Virus record (IMG/VR): IMGVR_UViG_3300040801_006092
Location: 1 to 24,811 of that record
Direction: 5' to 3' (one strand)
Origin: a virus
Length of the DNA: 24,811 nucleotides
A program made the position numbers and the translations under genes. The notes beneath the pieces are model-generated. The model saw only the letters and a list, made by a program, of their open reading frames with translations. It was not told the DNA's origin and did no database searches. Below, piece by piece: positions 2,634 to 18,739 of the stretch. Within the stretch, counting starts at the first letter, position 1. Each line of letters begins with the position of its first letter.

Positions 2634-3169
2634 TCCGCGGAGGCCGTCACCTCCGGGGGCGAGGGAGATCGCTCCGGCGATCTGCCAGACGGTGGCCCAC
2701 CCCCGGAAGTCTTGTCTTGCGTCTCGATCGCGTCCTCGGCCAACTTCCGGGGGTCGATCCGATCGAGTCTGGTCTCGATCGCCTTCACCGCGGCGTCGAT
2801 CATGCCCATCTGCTTGGCGACGGCTTTCGCGCGGTCGGTCCGCCCCCGACCTCGGAAAAAAACCACGAGCTCCTCGTAGAACGCCCGCTGCGCCGCCAAC
2901 AGTGTCTCGCCGTCGAAGACCCCCCGGACCTCTTCGGCGGTGACGCCGTGGCTGGCGAACTGGCCTTCAAGCATGAGGCAGAGGACTTCGCCCAGCAGCA
3001 TCTCGTCGGTGCCGAGCAGGGTCAGCGCGGGCGGTCCGTCGGGGTCGTCGCGGCGGGGGGATTCGGGTTGCAAGAGGTCGATGCCGAGTCTGTCGCGGAC
3101 GGCCATGGCGGTGCCGAGGTTGAGGGTTAGCGTCCATGTGCGGCCCGAGGCGTCTTGGAAGGTTTGCAT
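2630..3169 (-). CDS. Tail assembly chaperone, upstream frame (lambda gpG analogue)
   Basis: The product has 179 residues. I place the start at the ATG at 3169 (MQTFQDASGRTWTLTLNLGT), because an earlier ATG adds only a poor leader that overlaps the promoter region of the opposite-strand toxin-antitoxin pair. The N-terminal part looks like a small beta domain with TLNLGTAMAVRDRLGIDLL. The middle is helical (FYEELVVFFRGRGRTDRAKA). The last 25 residues, after QDKTS, are low-complexity Gly/Pro/Ser and look like a by-product of terminating in the zero frame. Proteins in this position hold the tape measure protein during tail polymerisation and are absent from the virion. It sits between the major tail gene and the tape measure gene, separated from the former by the inserted toxin-antitoxin pair. 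Confidence 0.75.
   Translation of the reverse strand: MQTFQDASGRTWTLTLNLGTAMAVRDRLGIDLLQPESPRRDDPDGPPALTLLGTDEMLLGEVLCLMLEGQFASHGVTAEEVRGVFDGETLLAAQRAFYEELVVFFRGRGRTDRAKAVAKQMGMIDAAVKAIETRLDRIDPRKLAEDAIETQDKTSGGGPPSGRSPERSPSPPEVTASAD
2696..2710 (-). other. Probable -1 programmed frameshift site joining the chaperone frames
   Basis: Read on the minus strand, the zero-frame codons are ACT TCC GGG GGT GGG. Moving back one base on the run of five G gives GGG TGG GCC ACC GTC TGG, which opens the downstream frame. Beyond this point the zero frame encodes low-complexity sequence to its stop at 2630, while the -1 frame encodes a well-formed helical segment leading into the next gene. A -1 shift between two overlapping frames just ahead of the tape measure gene is conserved across tailed phages. 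The heptamer is not a textbook X XXY YYZ site, so the exact slip codon is uncertain. Confidence 0.55.
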
Positions 3170-3204
3170 GGGTGGATTCCCGGTGGTCAAAGGTCGATAG
3201 AAGA

Positions 3205-3223
3205 TGTACACTTTTGATGTACA
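3205..3223 (+). promoter_or_regulatory. Paired TGTACA palindromes, likely operator of the antitoxin-toxin operon
   Basis: Two TGTACA palindromes (3205-3210 and 3218-3223) sit 13 bp centre to centre, within a direct repeat of GATGTACAC, 18 bases before the antitoxin ATG. TGTACA is the established core hexamer bound by the YefM antitoxin of the Phd/YefM family, where two palindromes lie about one helical turn apart. This gene encodes a Phd/YefM-type antitoxin, so autoregulation through these sites is a direct inference. Confidence 0.65.
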
Positions 3224-3240
3224 CCCCGGAGAGTTCGGTC

Positions 3241-3477
3241 ATGCGTACGCTCAGCGTCAAAGAAGTCCGCCAACACCTCAGCGACGTCATCCGCGAGGCG
3301 GAGGCTGGCGCGTCGGTCACGATCACCCGCTACGGCACCCCCATCGCGCAGATCACCCCGGTGGCCAAGGCGCGTCCGAAGTTCCCCGACCTCTCGGACT
3401 TCCGCGCCTCCATCCGCCCGCGCGGCAAGAACCTGTCGCAGACGCTTCGCGAGATGCGTGACGAGGAACGGGCGTGA
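3241..3477 (+). CDS. Phd/YefM-family antitoxin
   Basis: This 78-residue protein should bind and neutralise the toxin encoded directly downstream and repress their shared promoter. The N-terminal 50 residues show the Phd/YefM fold pattern: LSVKEVRQHLSDVIREAEAG, then VTITRYGTPIAQITPV, which is the usual beta-strand with a conserved Gly-Pro-Ala-like turn. The C-terminal 25 residues (FRASIRPRGKNLSQTLREM) should be the flexible toxin-binding tail. The ATG at 3241 has GGAG nine bases upstream; an in-frame ATG at 3217 would lie inside the operator, so I reject it. The stop overlaps the toxin start as GTGA. It lies on the strand opposite to the surrounding tail genes, so it has its own promoter and was probably inserted as a cassette. 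Family assignment is confident. Confidence 0.88.
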   Translation: MRTLSVKEVRQHLSDVIREAEAGASVTITRYGTPIAQITPVAKARPKFPDLSDFRASIRPRGKNLSQTLREMRDEERA

Positions 3478-3893
3478 GGGCGTACGTCGACACCAGCGTG
3501 TTGGCCGCTGCCTATTGCGATGAGCCCGGCACGCGTCGGGCCGACCGTGCGTTGCGTGAGTGTGAGCCGGCGATCTCCAGCCTGACCCGCGTTGAGTTCA
3601 GTTCCGCCGTTGCGCGCAAAGCCCGCGAGGGATCGTTGACCAGGACCGAGGCGACCCGCATCGTTGCGGAGTTCCAGACCCACGTCCGCGCCGATGTCTT
3701 CGAGCCCCTGTCGATCGACGAGACGCACTACGCGCTCGCGAACGACTGGATCGACTCGGGCGTCACCGCATTGCGGACGCTCGACGCGTTGCACCTGGCG
3801 GTTGCTCACGCCCACGGCATCGAGTTGATCACGGCCGACAAGACGCTGGCCAAGGCCGGCCGTCAACTCGGCTGTGCGATCAAGGCGATCTGA
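3474..3893 (+). CDS. vapC: PIN-domain ribonuclease toxin, VapC-like
   Basis: This 139-residue protein starts with GTG overlapping the antitoxin stop. PIN toxins are Mg-dependent RNases that cut tRNA or rRNA and stop growth when the antitoxin is degraded. The expected acidic residues are in place: Asp6 in YVDTSVLAAAY, Glu41 in TRVEFSSAV, Asp104 in LRTLDALHLAVA and Asp122 in LITADKTLAKA. Length matches the family. The pair is a common hybrid of a Phd-type antitoxin with a PIN toxin. It ends 14 bases from the convergent end of the major tail protein gene. In a temperate phage such a pair can stabilise the prophage or exclude competing phages. The active site appears complete, so the toxin should be functional. 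Confidence 0.9.
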   Translation: MRAYVDTSVLAAAYCDEPGTRRADRALRECEPAISSLTRVEFSSAVARKAREGSLTRTEATRIVAEFQTHVRADVFEPLSIDETHYALANDWIDSGVTALRTLDALHLAVAHAHGIELITADKTLAKAGRQLGCAIKAI

Positions 3894-10388: not shown

Positions 10389-10862
10389 TCAAGTCCCTTG
10401 TAGCTCCTCAGCCAGCTTGCGCAGCTTTTTGAGAAGCGGGGCGGAGAACTGGCCTTGACCTGGGGTCGTCTGGGCGAACGACAGGATCGCGTTGACGAGT
10501 TGCAGAAAGGGCTCGGGCTTCATGGTCCCGATGCGCTTGCCCGCGGTGATCGACGCCAGTGGCACCCGATCGATCTGCAACACCGACCACTCCGCCATCA
10601 CGCCCGTGCGGTTGACGTGCCATTCGATCGCCTGGGCGTTGTCGAGGAGCACGGACAGCGCCGACCGATCCACACCCCGGCTCACGTAAAACTCAATCGC
10701 ACGGGAGATCGTCTCACGCCCGGCGGTGAACGCAGGCACGACAAGCGCTTCCTTGCTGCCGGCCACCTCGAGTACCACGACGCAGGGGTGGTCGCTGTAG
10801 GGCGCGGATATCCGCGGATCCTTCGAGTCGCAGTCGTAGACCCTCGCCCTGAGATCAGCCAT
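10389..10862 (-). CDS. Unknown 157-residue protein, possible partner of the Panacea protein
   Basis: ATG at 10862 overlaps the Panacea gene end by eight bases, with GAGG upstream. The protein begins MADLRARVYDCDSKDPRISA and has a beta-rich N-terminal half (PCVVVLEVAGSKEALVVPAF), a helix (TISRAIEFYVSRGVDRSALS), a middle part near IEWHVNRTGVMAEW, and a basic C-terminal helix LLKKLRKLAEELQ. No membrane segment, PIN, Fic, RelE or synthetase motif is visible, so it is not one of the toxin types I know to pair with Panacea. It might be the cognate toxin of a new pair or a third component. In the three-gene set it lies in the middle. Its function is unknown. Confidence 0.7.
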   Translation of the reverse strand: MADLRARVYDCDSKDPRISAPYSDHPCVVVLEVAGSKEALVVPAFTAGRETISRAIEFYVSRGVDRSALSVLLDNAQAIEWHVNRTGVMAEWSVLQIDRVPLASITAGKRIGTMKPEPFLQLVNAILSFAQTTPGQGQFSAPLLKKLRKLAEELQGT

Positions 10863-11466
10863 CGCCTCGCCACGCTTCGATCATCAGCCGCGCGGCGGTG
10901 TGGTCCTCGCCGGTCTGGGCGTCGTAAGCGTCGATGACCTCCGTCCAGTCGATGGCCTTGGCACCGTCTCGCTGGCGAGCCGCGTTCCAGGCCCGGCCCA
11001 TGTAGCCGTCGCCGTGGAAGAAGTTTTCACGCTGGCCGAAGGTCATCGGGATGATCTCGTGCCAGGCCCGACGCAGCGACTCAAGCTCGGCGGCGCTGAA
11101 GTCCTCGTCATCCACGGTGCCGTAGGGTTCGTAGATGAATCGGTTGCCCGACTTGGCGATGACCCGGATCTTGCCTTGATGGGTGTCGCCAGCCTCGTCG
11201 AACCTGTGGCCGAGCGACTTGATCCGGTTGTACCCCTCGGTGACGACCGGGCCATGCTTCCACGGACTCAGCCTGCCGCCGATCATCTGCTTGCCGGTCT
11301 CAAGCACATGGAAGAAGTCGGCCATCACGTGGAGCTTCGTGATGTCGTGCTGGTCCAGCGAGCGGCCATACACCCGCATGAGGTGGTTCATGCAGGCATC
11401 GAACCGCTCCGGGCTGAAGGGCTTGAGCTGGTTGATCAGCATTTGGGGGGGGCAAATCGCGTTCAT
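10855..11466 (-). CDS. Panacea (DUF4065, SocA-like) antitoxin-type protein
   Basis: The product has 203 residues from ATG at 11466, with AGGCGAGG upstream. The Panacea domain pattern is clear: DITKLHVMADFFHVLETGK near 41-59, IGGRLSPWKHGPVVTEGYN near 62-80, a strand around IRVIAKSGNRFIYEPYG and a C-terminal helix set ending AAELESLRRAWHEI. Panacea proteins are versatile antitoxins known to neutralise several unrelated toxins, mostly in phages and prophages; SocA is a distinct adaptor role in the same fold. This copy has a usual-length domain plus about 60 extra C-terminal residues (WNAARQRDGAKAIDWTEVID). Codons 5-7 lie in a run of eight C, so length slippage could shift the frame. The gene leads its cassette. 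Confidence 0.83.
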   Translation of the reverse strand: MNAICPPQMLINQLKPFSPERFDACMNHLMRVYGRSLDQHDITKLHVMADFFHVLETGKQMIGGRLSPWKHGPVVTEGYNRIKSLGHRFDEAGDTHQGKIRVIAKSGNRFIYEPYGTVDDEDFSAAELESLRRAWHEIIPMTFGQRENFFHGDGYMGRAWNAARQRDGAKAIDWTEVIDAYDAQTGEDHTAARLMIEAWRGDG

Positions 11467-14298: not shown

Positions 14299-14517
14299 AT
14301 GACAAACGACCCCACCCACCAAGAAGCGACTGCGGAGACGGGCATTCCGGGGGACGTCTATCGCGCCACCGTCACCGACCTGATCGCCCGCCGCGAGGCC
14401 GGCACCTTCGCCTTCTTCGCCGACTCGATCGAAGACGCCCGCGAGAAGGCTTGGCGCATCGCCGGCCAGCGCTACACGAGCGACATCCACGTCCGCGTCG
14501 AACGCGGCAACGCCTGA
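14299..14517 (+). CDS. Small hypothetical protein, first gene of the plus-strand operon
   Basis: The product has 72 residues; ATG at 14299 has an excellent GGAAGGAG binding site. It begins MTNDPTHQEATAETG and continues with DVYRATVTDLIARREAGTFA and FFADSIEDAREKAWRIAGQR, then YTSDIHVRVERGN. The layout is a small alpha/beta domain with a helix and strand, and the REKAWRIA helix reads like a short accessory domain seen in phage early genes. No catalytic residues are visible. It opens an operon transcribed away from the terminase genes. The 107-base divergent gap (14192-14298) must hold both promoters, but I could not pick a convincing -35/-10 pair in either direction. Function is unknown. Confidence 0.75.
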   Translation: MTNDPTHQEATAETGIPGDVYRATVTDLIARREAGTFAFFADSIEDAREKAWRIAGQRYTSDIHVRVERGNA

Positions 14518-14565
14518 CCACCCCACCACCCCCCCGGAATTAGCACCCCCCGCAGGAGCCCTTCG

Positions 14566-14808
14566 ATGACAACTCACGCACCCGACGCCGCCGCCACCTA
14601 CGCCCAGCGCCGCGAAGACGTCGCCCGGCTCGTCGACTGGATCGAGCTCGAACTCGAACGCCACCGCGTCCGCGCCAAGGCCAACCCCACCGACTGGGGA
14701 TACCCCGGCGACCTCGGCCGCGTCCGCGACACGCTCATCGACGCGCTCGCCTTCCTCGCGGGCAGCGACCCCGACCAGATCCGAGAGGGGCTCAGCGACT
14801 GTCGCTGA
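14566..14808 (+). CDS. Small acidic/basic helical hypothetical protein
   Basis: The product has 80 residues with ATG at 14566 and GCAGGAG upstream. It is almost entirely helical: TYAQRREDVARLVDWIELEL, RHRVRAKANPTDWGYPGDLG, then RVRDTLIDALAFLAGSDPD. There is no membrane segment and no recognised motif. It follows the previous gene by 48 bases and is followed by a 36-base gap to the HARE-HTH gene; each gene has its own strong ribosome binding site, which suggests a deliberately well-translated early operon. The coding signal is solid from G/C-rich third positions and site quality. Function is unknown. Confidence 0.75.
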   Translation: MTTHAPDAAATYAQRREDVARLVDWIELELERHRVRAKANPTDWGYPGDLGRVRDTLIDALAFLAGSDPDQIREGLSDCR

Positions 14809-14844
14809 CCCCGCAATCCCACCCCTCCCAACAGGAGAATCATC

Positions 14845-15474
14845 GTGAAAAAAGAAGACATCAAAATCGGCAACACCTACTCCGCCAAGATCACCGACAA
14901 GGTCGTACCCATCCGCATCGACGCCGAGCACGACAGCGGCGGATGGATCGCGACCAACCTCAAGACCAACCGCCAGGTCCGCATCAAGTCGGCCCAGAAG
15001 CTCCGCGGCGAGGTCAAGACCAACCCCGCCGCCGCGAAGAGCAGGCAGCCGATGAAGAAGCTGACCGCCGCCGAGCGCAAGGCCCGCAACGCCCAGCTCA
15101 AGGCCCAGGCCGCGGCCGACCAGGAAAACGCCCGGGTCCGCGACGAACGCGACGCCAGCAAAGACGGCATGACCGCCAGCGAGCGGGCCATGACGGAGAC
15201 CGCGAAGAAGTCCAAGGCTAAGCGGCCCAAGGCCGACAAGGCGATGAGCCTGCTCGACGCCGCGGCCAAGGTCCTCGCCGACGCCAAGACGCCAATGAAC
15301 ACACGCGAGATGGTCGACGCGGTCACCGAGAAGGGCCTGTGGAAGCCCGGTGCCGGCAAGACGCCCCACGCCACGCTCTACTCGGCCATCCTCCGCGAAA
15401 CCAAGGTCAAAGGTGACGAGGCCCGGTTCGCCAAGGTCGAACGCGGCCGGTTCACCCTGACGAAGGGGGCGTGA
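14845..15474 (+). CDS. HARE-HTH domain protein
   Basis: This 209-residue protein starts with GTG at 14845, seven bases after AGGAG. Residues 1-60 form a small beta domain (IKIGNTYSAKITDKVVPIRI and NRQVRIKSAQKLRGEVK). Residues 70-130 are a highly charged Lys/Ala linker. Residues 132-205 are the HARE-HTH winged helix: MSLLDAAAKVLADAKTPMNT, then REMVDAVTEKGLWKPGAGKT, PHATLYSAILRETK and the final FAKVERGRFTLTKG. In bacteria and eukaryotes this domain is linked by comparative genomics to recognition or control of DNA base modification, and it is related to the RNA polymerase delta subunit domain. Here it sits in an operon ending in an Nmad-like gene next to a methyltransferase, which agrees with that association. 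Confidence 0.85.
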   Translation: MKKEDIKIGNTYSAKITDKVVPIRIDAEHDSGGWIATNLKTNRQVRIKSAQKLRGEVKTNPAAAKSRQPMKKLTAAERKARNAQLKAQAAADQENARVRDERDASKDGMTASERAMTETAKKSKAKRPKADKAMSLLDAAAKVLADAKTPMNTREMVDAVTEKGLWKPGAGKTPHATLYSAILRETKVKGDEARFAKVERGRFTLTKGA

Positions 15475-15477
15475 ACC

Positions 15478-15834
15478 GTGCCGACCCGACGACGACCCAA
15501 TAGCCGTGCGGTGCTCTTCGACGTCGTTGATGACCACCTGGAGATGAAGGTGAGCTTCCTCGACGCCCCAGACCGCGGCTACGTCCACCGCTGCACCCGG
15601 GACATCTTCCGCGAGGTCGCCTTCACGATCGAAGAACACGCCGCGGGCGGCATGACGCTCGAAGACCTCGTGGCCGAGATGGACGCCCCGTACACGCAGG
15701 TCAACGTCGCGCTCGCCTTCATGAAAGAACGCGGCTGCGTCGAGGTCCGCCGAAGGCGCAGCTACCCCGCGTCGGCAGCCCTCTACGAGGACGCCATGAC
15801 CGAGTTCATGTACCTGGCCGAAGCGCCGTACTGA
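15478..15834 (+). CDS. Probable winged-helix protein of unknown role
   Basis: The product has 118 residues with GTG at 15478, four bases after the HARE-HTH stop, so translation is probably coupled. The centre shows helix-turn-helix order: DIFREVAFTIEEHAAGG, MTLEDLVAEMDAPYTQVNVA, LAFMKERGCVEVRRRRSY, the last with the usual wing-like basic hairpin. It looks like a small MarR- or replication-type winged helix which would bind nucleic acid. No catalytic residues are visible. It may act with the HARE-HTH protein as a second DNA-binding subunit. A weak intrinsic terminator follows at 15859-15884. Confidence 0.7.
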   Translation: MPTRRRPNSRAVLFDVVDDHLEMKVSFLDAPDRGYVHRCTRDIFREVAFTIEEHAAGGMTLEDLVAEMDAPYTQVNVALAFMKERGCVEVRRRRSYPASAALYEDAMTEFMYLAEAPY

Positions 15835-15858
15835 GCGCATCACGCCTTCTCCGCTCCC

Positions 15859-15884
15859 ACCCCGGCCGTCGCGACTGGGGTTTT
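15859..15884 (+). terminator. Weak intrinsic terminator after the plus-strand operon
   Basis: ACCCC (15859-15863) and GGGGT (15877-15881) pair around a centre containing the palindrome GTCGCGAC, followed by TTTT at 15881-15884 and then CTCG. The short stem and U-run suggest partial termination ahead of the Nmad-like gene, which has its own binding site. Confidence 0.45.
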
Positions 15885-15951
15885 CTCGTGGTAGATCAGG
15901 GCGGGTATCTTGACGCCTCGTAACGGATCTAGTTCTGCGGGAGCAAGTGTC

Positions 15952-17310
15952 GTGCAGGTCATCCTCGTACGAGTCGGCGTCGATCACTCCTTCGGTCAAT
16001 GGAATGCGCCGGTCGACGCCGCCACCGGGAAGTTCGTCTACGTCCCGATCCCCGAGAAAGCCGGCACCGCATTTCACGTCGGGTGCGAGCGCCCATACAC
16101 CGCGATCGTGCCGGCAATCGAGGCGTTCGCTCAGGAGACTGGCGTGCCGATCGCATTGCCAGACCACCTGGCTAAGCGGGCGATGCACCTGGATCCTGAC
16201 TTCGAGTATTTGACCTACGGCGATGTAGGTAGCCGCCGCGGGTCGCACATCCGGGAACTCAAGGAAGACGATGCATTGGTGTTCTACGCCGGGCTCAAGC
16301 CCTGCCAGTCCTGCGAACACAAGCTGATCTATGCATTCATCGGTTTGATGGTTGTCGACGAAGTCGTCGACGCCGCCTCGGTCGCCAGGCAACGTCGCGA
16401 TGAGAACGCTCATACACGCAAAATCAAGATGGGAGCCACCGACATAGTCGTGCGAGGCAAGCCTGGGGTGTCTGGGCGTTTGCAGCGATGCCTCCCGATC
16501 GGCGAGTACCGCGACCGGGCCTATCGGATCCGTCACGACCTGCTCGAAGCCTGGGGTGGCCTTACGGTCAAGGATGGCTACATCCAACGCAGTGCTCGAC
16601 CGCCAAGGTTCAGTGACCCTGCCCGCTTCATGGCGTGGTGGGCAACACAGCAACCGTCGTTGATCGAGCTGAATAACCCCAACGCCGAGCCGGAGCGTGT
16701 GGTCATCGTCCACCTGCGGCAGCCGCGCCGCAATGACCCCAACGAGATGCGATCCGACCCGTTCTACGAGTTCGGCAGCTTTGGCTGCACCGGCTGTCAC
16801 CGCAAGAACCTGATGAACCCTAAGAAGCTTCATGAACTTGACAGGGCCAGGCTGGCGTTCGTCCAAGGCGGAAGAGGTGAGTTTCGACTGATCATGCTCA
16901 CGCCACCGGCCCGCACGCTGAAGCGCGACGGAGTCTGCGAAGTGAAATGGGAGCCGACCACTCAGCCATTTCGATTCAATCAGGCACCGTTGATCATCGA
17001 TCGGGACGGCAACACTGACTTCCCCGCCCTCAAGCATATGATCCAGGTGACGGATCGCACAACGTGGCTGGGCCGTTTCTCCAGCAAATTTCGATCCAGT
17101 CGCAAGGCGCTGCGTAGCCACGTCGCCGCTGAAATGTGTCAGGTCTATCGGAGGATTCACGCGAAGACGACGCCGGCAGGATTTGCGACAAGCTACGTGC
17201 AGACGTTGCCATTCCCGCCGAACATTATCGACACGGACCGGTCGGGCACATATCGGCGGCTGCTCAGAATGAAGAAGGCGAACGGTCATCGGCATAAGTC
17301 GCGGTGTTGA
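15952..17310 (+). CDS. Nmad3-like nucleotide-modification-associated protein with a zinc-type C-terminal region
   Basis: The product has 452 residues. I choose GTG at 15952, nine bases after GGGAG, over an upstream TTG that adds a poor leader. Residues 1-130 resemble Nmad3, a domain predicted by comparative genomics to assist complex DNA base modification in phages: VILVRVGVDHSFGQWNAPVD, FVYVPIPEKAG, HLDPDFEYLTYGDVG, DDALVFYAGLKPC and YAFIGLMVVDEVV. The remainder, about 320 residues, is unfamiliar; it contains CTGCH near 280, possibly half of a metal site, plus CQSCEH near 120. The base composition is less GC-rich than in the preceding genes, suggesting separate acquisition. It ends 44 bases from the convergent methyltransferase gene. 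The family call is moderate and should be tested by profile search. Confidence 0.68.
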   Translation: MQVILVRVGVDHSFGQWNAPVDAATGKFVYVPIPEKAGTAFHVGCERPYTAIVPAIEAFAQETGVPIALPDHLAKRAMHLDPDFEYLTYGDVGSRRGSHIRELKEDDALVFYAGLKPCQSCEHKLIYAFIGLMVVDEVVDAASVARQRRDENAHTRKIKMGATDIVVRGKPGVSGRLQRCLPIGEYRDRAYRIRHDLLEAWGGLTVKDGYIQRSARPPRFSDPARFMAWWATQQPSLIELNNPNAEPERVVIVHLRQPRRNDPNEMRSDPFYEFGSFGCTGCHRKNLMNPKKLHELDRARLAFVQGGRGEFRLIMLTPPARTLKRDGVCEVKWEPTTQPFRFNQAPLIIDRDGNTDFPALKHMIQVTDRTTWLGRFSSKFRSSRKALRSHVAAEMCQVYRRIHAKTTPAGFATSYVQTLPFPPNIIDTDRSGTYRRLLRMKKANGHRHKSRC

Positions 17311-17322
17311 GGTGGATGGCGA

Positions 17323-17344
17323 CAGACACAGCTGGTGATGTCTG
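17323..17344. terminator. Short inverted repeat between convergent genes
   Basis: CAGACA (17323-17328) pairs with TGTCTG (17339-17344) in the 43-base gap between the Nmad-like gene and the convergent methyltransferase gene. A flanking GCG/CGC may lengthen the stem imperfectly. No U-run follows on either strand, so the terminator role is only suggested by placement. Confidence 0.3.
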
Positions 17345-17353
17345 CGCTGGTAG

Positions 17354-18739
17354 TCAATTGCACGCGAGAACTTCTTTGCCTTCCGCCGGTGATGCATGTG
17401 TCACCTGAAGACGCTCGGCCTTCTTGCCGGTGAACTGCTCCCAGCGCTTCACGATCACGTCGCAGTAGGCCGGGTCGATCTCCATCAGGAACGCCCGACG
17501 GCCGGTCGTCTCGCAGCCGATCAGCGTCGAGCCCGACCCGCCGAAGAGGTCGAGGACGTTCTCGCCGGCCTGCGATGAGTACTCAATGGCCAGCCGGGCA
17601 AGCTCCACCGGCTTTTCGGTCAGGTGGACCATTGATTGCGGGTTGACCTTCTTGACGTGCCAGAGGTCGGTGGCGTTGTTGGGCCCGAAGTACCGATGGG
17701 CCGCACCCTCTTTCCATCCATAAAACGCAATCTCGAACGCCCCCATGAAATCTTTTCGCGTCAGGACGGGGTGCTGTTTGTCCCAGACGATGCACTGGCT
17801 GAAATACAACCCGGCCCGCTTGAGCGGCGCGGGGTAGTTCCCCAGGTTGGCGTACCCGCCCCAGACGAAGAACGATGCTCCGGGCTTCATCACGCGGGCC
17901 GCGTTCCCGAACCAGGCGTCGAGCAGCGCGTCGAACTCCTCGTCCGTGACGAAGTCGTTCTCCAGCGGGCGGTCCTTGGCACGCATCTGCTTATGCGTCG
18001 GCTTTGACTTCTCCGGGTGCCGGGCCAGGTCGAGCTTCTGATGGTGTCCCCCGGACCCCTTGGCTTTTCCGGGGGCCTTGGCGAACGACGAGTTGCCGGC
18101 GGCGATCGCGTTGTTCGACCGGGGCTCGACCTTGACGTTGTACGGCGGGTCAGTGTTGAGCAGGTGGATCACCGCGCCGTCGAGCAGGACGTCGAGGTCG
18201 GCCGGCTTCGATGAGTCGCCGCACATCAGGCGGTGCCCATTCCGGGGGTTGCCGAGGACCCACACGTCGCCGGGTTGGGTGGTGGGGTCGTCGGGCGGTT
18301 CGGGGACGTCGTCCTCGTCGGTCATCCCCTCGCTGGTGCCGTTGCCGCTGGCCAGCAGCCGGTCCAGTTCGTCCTCCGCGAAGCCGAGCAGCCCCAGTTC
18401 GTAGTTGGCCGCCTGCAGCTCGGACAGCTCGATCGGCAGCAGGTCCATGTCCCACTCGGCGATCGTCGCCGTCTGGTTGTCGGCGATGCGGTACGCCTTG
18501 ATCTGATCGTCCGACAGGTCCTCGGCCACGTGCACCGGCACCTTGGCCAGGCCGAGCTGCTTGGCCGCCTTCCACCGCGTATGCCCGACGATGATCACGC
18601 CGTCGGCGTCCACGACGATGGGCTGGCGGAAGCCGAACTCCTTCAGTGAATGGGCGACCGCCTCCACGGCGGGGTCGTTGATGCGGGGGTTCTTCTCGTA
18701 CGGGCGGACGTCATCGATGGCGGTGAGCTTGATCTTCAT
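17354..18739 (-). CDS. ParB-domain DNA methyltransferase (beta-class, N6-adenine or N4-cytosine)
   Basis: The 461-residue protein transfers methyl from S-adenosylmethionine to an exocyclic amine of DNA. Residues 1-110 are a ParB/Srx-like domain (IDDVRPYEKNPRIN, GHTRWKAAKQLGL near 52-64, AYRIADNQTATIAEW). Catalytic motif IV is TDPPYNVKV near 196-204, and the cofactor motif I is LDLFGGSGSTLIGCE near 395-409; this order (IV before I) defines the beta class. GGENVLDL-type sequence precedes motif I. The family is common in phages and can protect DNA against restriction. A 35-residue insert (KAKGSGGHHQKLDLARHP) separates the catalytic motif from the target recognition part. ATG at 18739 follows AAAGGAA. 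It has no partner restriction enzyme here. Two copies of the dispersed word lie within the gene. Confidence 0.93.
   Translation of the reverse strand: MKIKLTAIDDVRPYEKNPRINDPAVEAVAHSLKEFGFRQPIVVDADGVIIVGHTRWKAAKQLGLAKVPVHVAEDLSDDQIKAYRIADNQTATIAEWDMDLLPIELSELQAANYELGLLGFAEDELDRLLASGNGTSEGMTDEDDVPEPPDDPTTQPGDVWVLGNPRNGHRLMCGDSSKPADLDVLLDGAVIHLLNTDPPYNVKVEPRSNNAIAAGNSSFAKAPGKAKGSGGHHQKLDLARHPEKSKPTHKQMRAKDRPLENDFVTDEEFDALLDAWFGNAARVMKPGASFFVWGGYANLGNYPAPLKRAGLYFSQCIVWDKQHPVLTRKDFMGAFEIAFYGWKEGAAHRYFGPNNATDLWHVKKVNPQSMVHLTEKPVELARLAIEYSSQAGENVLDLFGGSGSTLIGCETTGRRAFLMEIDPAYCDVIVKRWEQFTGKKAERLQVTHASPAEGKEVLACN

What the first reader, a model, noticed from the sequence alone, without database searches (positions are those of the whole stretch)
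14299..18739. Possible DNA base modification module: HARE-HTH, winged helix, Nmad3-like protein and ParB-methyltransferase
Comparative genomics of phage base hypermodification has linked Nmad domains and HARE-HTH domains to modified DNA. Here they lie together in one plus-strand operon that converges on a ParB-fused methylase. Two small proteins of unknown function open the operon. The Nmad-like protein has a 320-residue C-terminal region with CxxC motifs that I do not recognise. Together they could synthesise, place and sense an unusual base.
Basis: partly seen in the sequence, partly recalled or inferred. Interest (0 to 1): 0.78.

Follow-up and report, generated by a model that had tools for sequence, protein, structure and literature searches.

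The report
Two-domain modified-base reader, phage cargo
In a spot where its relatives swap toxins and other accessory genes, this phage carries one protein made of two domains predicted to be shaped like proteins that recognise chemically modified DNA or RNA bases; the second domain is a family with no name in the databases searched, and its partnership with the first recurs across many bacterial phyla.

Summary
The genes are there as described: HARE-HTH, a small winged-helix-like protein, an Nmad3 protein and a convergent ParB-methylase. Reading them as one base-synthesis module is not supported. In 44 related phage contigs with enough sequence, HARE-HTH and the ParB-methylase are core (40 have both), while Nmad3 is in none of 50 records. 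Between the two core genes lies a variable slot (about 30 to 2,300 bp); in relatives it holds Fic, Doc/MazE, RES-like or nucleotide-pool genes. The window's Nmad3 gene follows a conserved intrinsic terminator, so it is probably not in the HARE operon. Its unknown C-terminus is a ~200-residue domain with no family match; its "CxxC" is not conserved. Predicted structures place both halves among PUA-superfamily modified-base readers (EVE, YTH, ASCH). In 53 homologues the C-domain is fused to or beside Nmad3 in 43, with repeated fusion; in Planctomycetes Nmad3 often pairs instead with Nmad2, never with both. Best reading: an accessory tandem reader of modified nucleobases used in phage-host conflict. 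The fold is a prediction of moderate strength; ligand, catalysis and role are untested.

The parts
14299..14517 (+). small ORF A, unknown
   Evidence: no family in Pfam or NCBIfam and only weak PHROG matches; no relative in 80 related contigs
14566..14808 (+). small ORF B, unknown, conserved upstream of the HARE gene
   Evidence: tblastn relatives in 21 of 80 related contigs
14845..15474 (+). HARE-HTH protein (HARE-HTH at residues 134-205), core gene of the phage family
   Evidence: PF05066 E 2.1e-13; present in 40 of 44 relatives with >4.5 kb upstream of TerL
15478..15834 (+). small winged-helix-like protein
   Evidence: sub-threshold TrmB/MarR matches; relatives at the same place in 9 contigs
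15859..15881 (+). intrinsic terminator hairpin followed by a T run, 24 nt after the wH stop codon
   Evidence: same offset in L002, L003, L005, L006 and L010, with a C-G to T-A change kept paired in the stem
15952..17310 (+). accessory gene: Nmad3 fused to an unnamed YTH/EVE-like partner domain (ORF open from TTG 15910)
   Evidence: PF18754 E 2.7e-22; AlphaFold2 mean pLDDT 90.8; homologous fusions and gene pairs
15958..16668 (+). Nmad3 domain, PUA-superfamily-like fold
   Evidence: PF18754 residues 17-204 of the ORF; VIA Z 8.4 to MJECL36, 7.9 to VcaM4I, 7.5 to ZmASCH
16669..17247 (+). C-terminal partner domain, YTH/EVE-like fold, no family in the libraries searched
   Evidence: 53-sequence alignment; model pLDDT 93.1; VIA Z 8.0 EVE, 7.9 YTH; no significant Pfam match in 53 members
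17354..18739 (-). ParB_N-N6_N4 methylase with DPPY and FGGSG motifs, core gene of the phage family
   Evidence: PF02195 and PF01555, phrog_498 E 2.2e-127; in 42 of 44 relatives

Best explanation
The Nmad3 gene is an accessory (cargo) gene in a variable slot between two core genes of this phage family. It encodes a tandem reader: an Nmad3 domain and a second, previously unnamed domain, each with a predicted PUA-superfamily fold of the EVE/YTH/ASCH type. Shown: family matches, cargo position, conserved terminator, recurrent pairing and fusion. Predicted: the fold. Inferred: the two domains cooperate to bind one or more modified nucleobases in DNA or RNA in a flipped-base pocket. As the protein has no recognisable nuclease or ATPase, it would act by occupying or flagging modified sites, in conflict with the host or rival phages. 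The neighbouring HARE-HTH and ParB-methylase are a separate, conserved core pair that may mark and sense methylated phage DNA.
For: Cargo: HARE and methylase both in 40 of 44 relatives; Nmad3 in 0 of 50 records, with 6 of 6 positive controls ringing. Slot size 30-2,276 bp; alternative cargo Fic, Doc/MazE, RES (sub-threshold), dATP/dGTP diphosphohydrolase + DUF1937. L010 has about 30 bp where the window has the gene, with flanking genes 79% and 84% identical. Conserved terminator upstream. Pairing: of 53 C-domains, 8 fused, 28 N-then-C, 5 C-then-N, 2 divergent, 10 solo; the fused state needs 6 changes on the tree, at least 3 forced by supported branches. The search that found them used only the C-domain. 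Unbiased sample: 7 of 8 C-domains in 298 genomes lie beside or in frame with a PF18754 match, and the eighth beside one found on reading the locus. Fold: all listed rows for the C-domain are YTH/EVE (best Z 8.0, 123 residues, 3.3 A); the N-domain matches EVE, ASCH and YTH; Foldseek top hits are McrB-N and THYN1 with m5C DNA. EVE and YTH domains bind modified bases (PMC7641849, PMC7897488). Defence-type neighbours in some genomes: HsdR, FRG, GIY-YIG, HerA, WYL.
Against: Z about 8 and Foldseek E above 0.001 are moderate; the tool warns that Z 7-8 can reflect a common arrangement. A shared fold does not show ligand binding; ASCH proteins can be enzymes. The C-domain has an unusually dense set of invariant polar residues (R, D, E, S, T, C, H, Q), which could mean catalysis. 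Nmad3 is solo in housekeeping contexts in 5 of 7 gammaproteobacterial genomes, and the C-domain is solo in 10 genomes, so neither is only a conflict gene. Most loci show no conserved neighbour beyond the pair, and no background rate of defence genes was measured.
Confidence: 0.55

Rival explanations
1. The protein is an enzyme on a PUA-like scaffold (as some ASCH proteins are) that acts on a modified nucleotide or RNA, the C-domain's R/D/E/T/C/H/Q set being its active site.
For: Many invariant polar residues in the C-domain, including TxCH; N-domain resembles ZmASCH (Z 7.5), for which ribonuclease activity is reported (PMC5615036, title). Solo copies in housekeeping contexts.
Against: Closest matches of both halves are mostly readers; no match to a catalytic family in any library.
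Confidence: 0.22
2. One reading: the genes form one functional module that makes, places and senses an unusual base.
For: Adjacency; all families are modification-related; HARE-HTH is a suggested modified-DNA reader (PMC11037411); one of two other phage-contig pairs (L087) has a ParB-methylase 1.5 kb away.
Against: Nmad3 absent from all relatives that keep HARE and methylase; terminator between them; no base-synthesis gene among the window proteins scanned, though the contig is a fragment; the pair usually has no methylase neighbour.
Confidence: 0.08
3. Counter-defence: the reader covers methylated sites laid by the phage's own ParB-methylase and so hides them from host modification-dependent restriction.
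For: YTH-like C-domain and a predicted N6-adenine-type methylase (DPPY motif) in the same phage; cargo position.
Confidence: 0.15

Closest known systems
Nmad3 (Pfam PF18754)
   Same: N-terminal half matches above the curated cut-off
   Different: Fused to a second domain not in Pfam; the L086/L087 phage-contig pairs use a divergent Nmad3 (about 20% identity) with the same second domain
Nmad2-Nmad3 pairs (PF18753 + PF18754)
   Same: Same logic: Nmad3 adjacent to or fused with a second ~200-aa domain (L151-L153, L156, L157, L159; fusion L158)
   Different: Here the partner is the unnamed C-domain; no profile similarity to Nmad2 detected; the two partners were never seen together in the Phycisphaerae sample
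PUA superfamily readers: EVE (THYN1, VcaM4I), YTH (YTHDF, Mmi1, McrB-N), ASCH
   Same: Predicted fold of both halves
   Different: No sequence match; no fused nuclease as in VcaM4I or AAA+ partner as in McrBC; tandem of two such domains
HARE-HTH proteins and phage ParB-methylases
   Same: Domain matches over cut-off
   Different: Ordinary members; core genes of this phage family

Membership tests
Nmad3 (PF18754) | profile match above the curated cut-off | tested here: met
   80.1 bits against 27
HARE-HTH (PF05066) | profile match above the curated cut-off | tested here: met
   50.9 bits against 25.9
ParB_N-methylase (phrog_498) | ParB_N followed by N6_N4_Mtase with DPPY and FGGSG motifs | tested here: met
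   PF02195 and PF01555 over cut-off; phrog_498 E 2.2e-127 over residues 1-448; motifs read in the sequence
PUA superfamily (EVE/YTH/ASCH), C-domain | PUA-type five-stranded core fold | tested here: met
   Model pLDDT 93.1; VIA Z 8.0 to EVE 2p5d, 7.9 to YTHDF3, all 50 listed entries of this superfamily. Moderate strength: Foldseek E not below 0.001
PUA superfamily (EVE/YTH/ASCH), Nmad3 half | PUA-type five-stranded core fold | tested here: inconclusive
   Z 8.4 MJECL36, 7.9 VcaM4I, 7.5 ASCH from the two-domain model only; not modelled alone
PUA superfamily readers | binding of a modified base | not testable with these tools
   needs binding assays
   no nuclease match for the window protein in Pfam, PHROGs, NCBIfam or PADLOC; its immediate neighbours are wH and methylase genes; a distant partner is not excluded
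Phage base-hypermodification pathway | base-synthesis or base-transfer enzyme in the genome | tested here: inconclusive
   none among the window proteins scanned, but the 24.8 kb contig is a fragment
Single operon HARE to Nmad3 | uninterrupted transcription | tested here: inconclusive
   conserved intrinsic terminator between wH and Nmad3 genes argues against; no RNA data

The most novel reading that the evidence does not exclude
Nmad3 plus an interchangeable partner domain (Nmad2 or the unnamed YTH-like domain) is a widespread, undescribed two-part sensor of modified nucleic acids that bacteria, archaea and phages use in genetic conflict, with the partner setting which modification is read.
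Probability: 0.3. Interest if true: 0.78.

Novelty: new variant of a known kind. Interest (0 to 1): 0.52.

Why it matters
Nmad domains were, to my knowledge, named from genome context. If Nmad3 and its partner are PUA-type readers, they should be tested for binding of modified bases, not only for making them. The work also defines a domain family with no entry in the libraries searched, gives its invariant residues, and shows that it and Nmad2 are alternative partners of Nmad3, which makes the ligand question directly testable with two or three purified proteins.

Tried and rejected
Full-length Nmad3 protein against viral contigs and phage records found nothing; plasmids gave weak Nmad3-only hits. 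The C-domain as a zinc knuckle was rejected because the first Cys varies. PDB sequence searches found no relative. PADLOC has no model for the pair. Internal duplication (N and C domains homologous to each other) is not shown: hhalign E 0.05, in register at the DPxFE..[YF]G motif but not significant. C-domain against Nmad2 profiles gave nothing. The first full-length alignment A5 aligned the start of C-only rows to the Nmad3 region, so the C-domain was modelled again alone. Foldseek against viral models gave only weak, ASCH-like hits. A general promoter/terminator scan did not list the terminator and folding of that stretch alone was no better than shuffles, so the terminator rests on position and conservation. 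Nmad3 as an obligate partner was rejected: 5 of 7 gammaproteobacterial copies are solo.

Full report
Observation. The methylase carries DPPY and, after it, FGGSG; by general knowledge this order is that of beta-class enzymes and DPPY points to N6-adenine methylation. The protein at 15478-15834 only resembles winged helices below threshold. The window is a 24.8 kb virus record with capsid, portal, tail-tube and terminase genes.

Core and cargo. A scan with the terminase gave 80 related contigs. Of the 44 with more than 4.5 kb upstream of the terminase, 40 have HARE-HTH, 42 the ParB-methylase and 40 both. Neither half of the Nmad3 protein occurs in any of the 80 loci by tblastn, and the Pfam model finds none in 50 whole records; the same search rings in 6 of 6 genomes or records known to hold Nmad3. 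The distance from HARE to the methylase varies from 30 to 2,276 bp. In L010, whose wH and methylase are 79% and 84% identical to the window's, about 30 bp separate the two genes where the window has 1.5 kb. Other relatives hold Fic proteins, a Doc/MazE pair, a sub-threshold RES protein, a dATP/dGTP diphosphohydrolase with DUF1937, or a weak radical-SAM match in the same slot. The Nmad3 gene is thus a cargo gene in a variable slot.

Transcription. An intrinsic terminator hairpin with a T run lies 24 nt after the wH stop codon (15859-15881). The same hairpin sits at the same offset in L002, L003, L005, L006 and L010, with a C-G to T-A change that keeps the stem paired. Folding and pattern scans of the single sequence did not single it out, so the case rests on conservation. 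The Nmad3 gene lies downstream and probably starts at GTG 15952 behind GGAG.

The unknown C-terminus. Viral contig L086 encodes Nmad3 (E 4e-69) and, as a separate overlapping gene, a homologue 52% identical to the window's C-terminal region; L087 has the same arrangement. A scan of genome contigs with the C-domain alone found 63 loci. In a tree of 53 C-domains, 8 are fused to Nmad3, 28 follow it, 5 precede it, 2 are divergent and 10 are solo; fusion needs 6 changes, at least 3 forced by supported branches. Apart from the pair itself, no neighbour is conserved broadly. No library names the domain. Invariant residues include LRxP, RxDP, EFGSFGxTxCH, FxQxG and one Trp; the first Cys of the 'CxxC' is replaced by L, I or Q in many sequences.

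Unbiased check. In 298 genomes of the class of G061 (the genome of L088, titled Phycisphaerales), 17 have Nmad3 and 8 have the C-domain. Seven of the eight C-domains lie next to or in the same frame as a listed Nmad3, and the eighth also has one beside it. Seven of the other Nmad3 genes lie beside, or are fused to, Nmad2 or a divergent Nmad2; three have neither partner; none has both. In 369 genomes of the class of G064 (the genome of L099, titled Gammaproteobacteria), 7 have Nmad3: one with the C-domain (the centre itself), one with Nmad2, five solo. So partnering is common in some lineages and not obligatory.

Structure. The full protein was predicted at mean pLDDT 90.8 and the C-domain alone at 93.1. 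Foldseek's best matches for the whole are the McrB N-terminal domain and THYN1 bound to m5C DNA, at E 0.009 and above. VIA-align places residues 12-259 on EVE (Z 8.4), VcaM4I (7.9), ASCH (7.5) and YTH folds, and residues 254-427 on YTH folds (Z 8.6). For the C-domain alone the best matches are an EVE protein (Z 8.0, 123 residues, 3.3 A) and YTH domains (7.9); all 50 listed entries are of the PUA superfamily. This is consistent but moderate evidence, since Z of 7-8 can reflect a common arrangement. EVE, YTH and SRA domains bind modified bases, and in VcaM4I the EVE domain flips 5mC (PMC7641849, PMC7897488). The EVE/DCD survey does not mention Nmad. It is a reasonable inference, not a demonstration, that both halves bind nucleobases.

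Role. The protein has no recognised effector domain. In some genomes the pair sits beside HsdR, FRG, GIY-YIG, HerA or WYL genes, and a nucleotide-modification-associated domain is among the predicted defence systems of the DefensePredictor paper (PMC13092281); the text does not say which Nmad. In the phage it sits where relatives keep toxin and other accessory genes. The best reading is a modified-nucleobase reader used in conflict. An enzyme on a PUA-like scaffold and a mask for the phage's own methylation are the main rivals. The HARE-HTH and methylase pair may still mark and sense phage DNA; HARE-HTH has been proposed as a reader of modified DNA (PMC11037411).

Verdict. Observation confirmed; interpretation partly supported; a new variant of a known kind.

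Noticed in passing
window 3136-3893 +: Phd/YefM antitoxin and PIN-domain toxin genes inserted on the plus strand between minus-strand tail genes.
   Followed up: partly
window 10389-11466 -: SocA/Panacea antitoxin-like gene (PF13274 E 2e-10) with an unknown neighbour between terminase and portal genes; neither has a relative in the 80 related contigs, so this may be a second cargo site.
   Followed up: partly
L051:5990-6819: In the same HARE-methylase slot a relative carries a dATP/dGTP diphosphohydrolase and a DUF1937 nucleoside-deoxyribosyltransferase-like gene, that is, nucleotide-pool genes.
   Followed up: no
L158:2-1300 -; L151, L152, L153, L156, L157, L159: Nmad3 fused to Nmad2 in L158 and adjacent to Nmad2 or a divergent Nmad2 in the others.
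   Followed up: partly
L085:5001-8272: Halorientalis plasmid Nmad3 protein with a CxxC-bearing C-terminal region, next to a 7-cyano-7-deazaguanine synthase annotation and a PfkB/nucleoside deoxyribosyltransferase fusion.
   Followed up: no
L105, L108, L109, L113: Solo C-domain genes in Melainabacteria follow a conserved ~520-aa gene with a methyltransferase-like stretch; these genomes have no Nmad3 match.
   Followed up: no
L126:8651-9253: A gene with a relative near L139's pair overlaps the end of the Nmad3 + C-domain operon by 4 bp; no Pfam or PADLOC match, looks like a possible PD-(D/E)XK nuclease by eye.
   Followed up: partly
L056:8132-8806 -: Slot cargo of 224 aa that by eye resembles another PUA-like protein; no Pfam match.
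   Followed up: no
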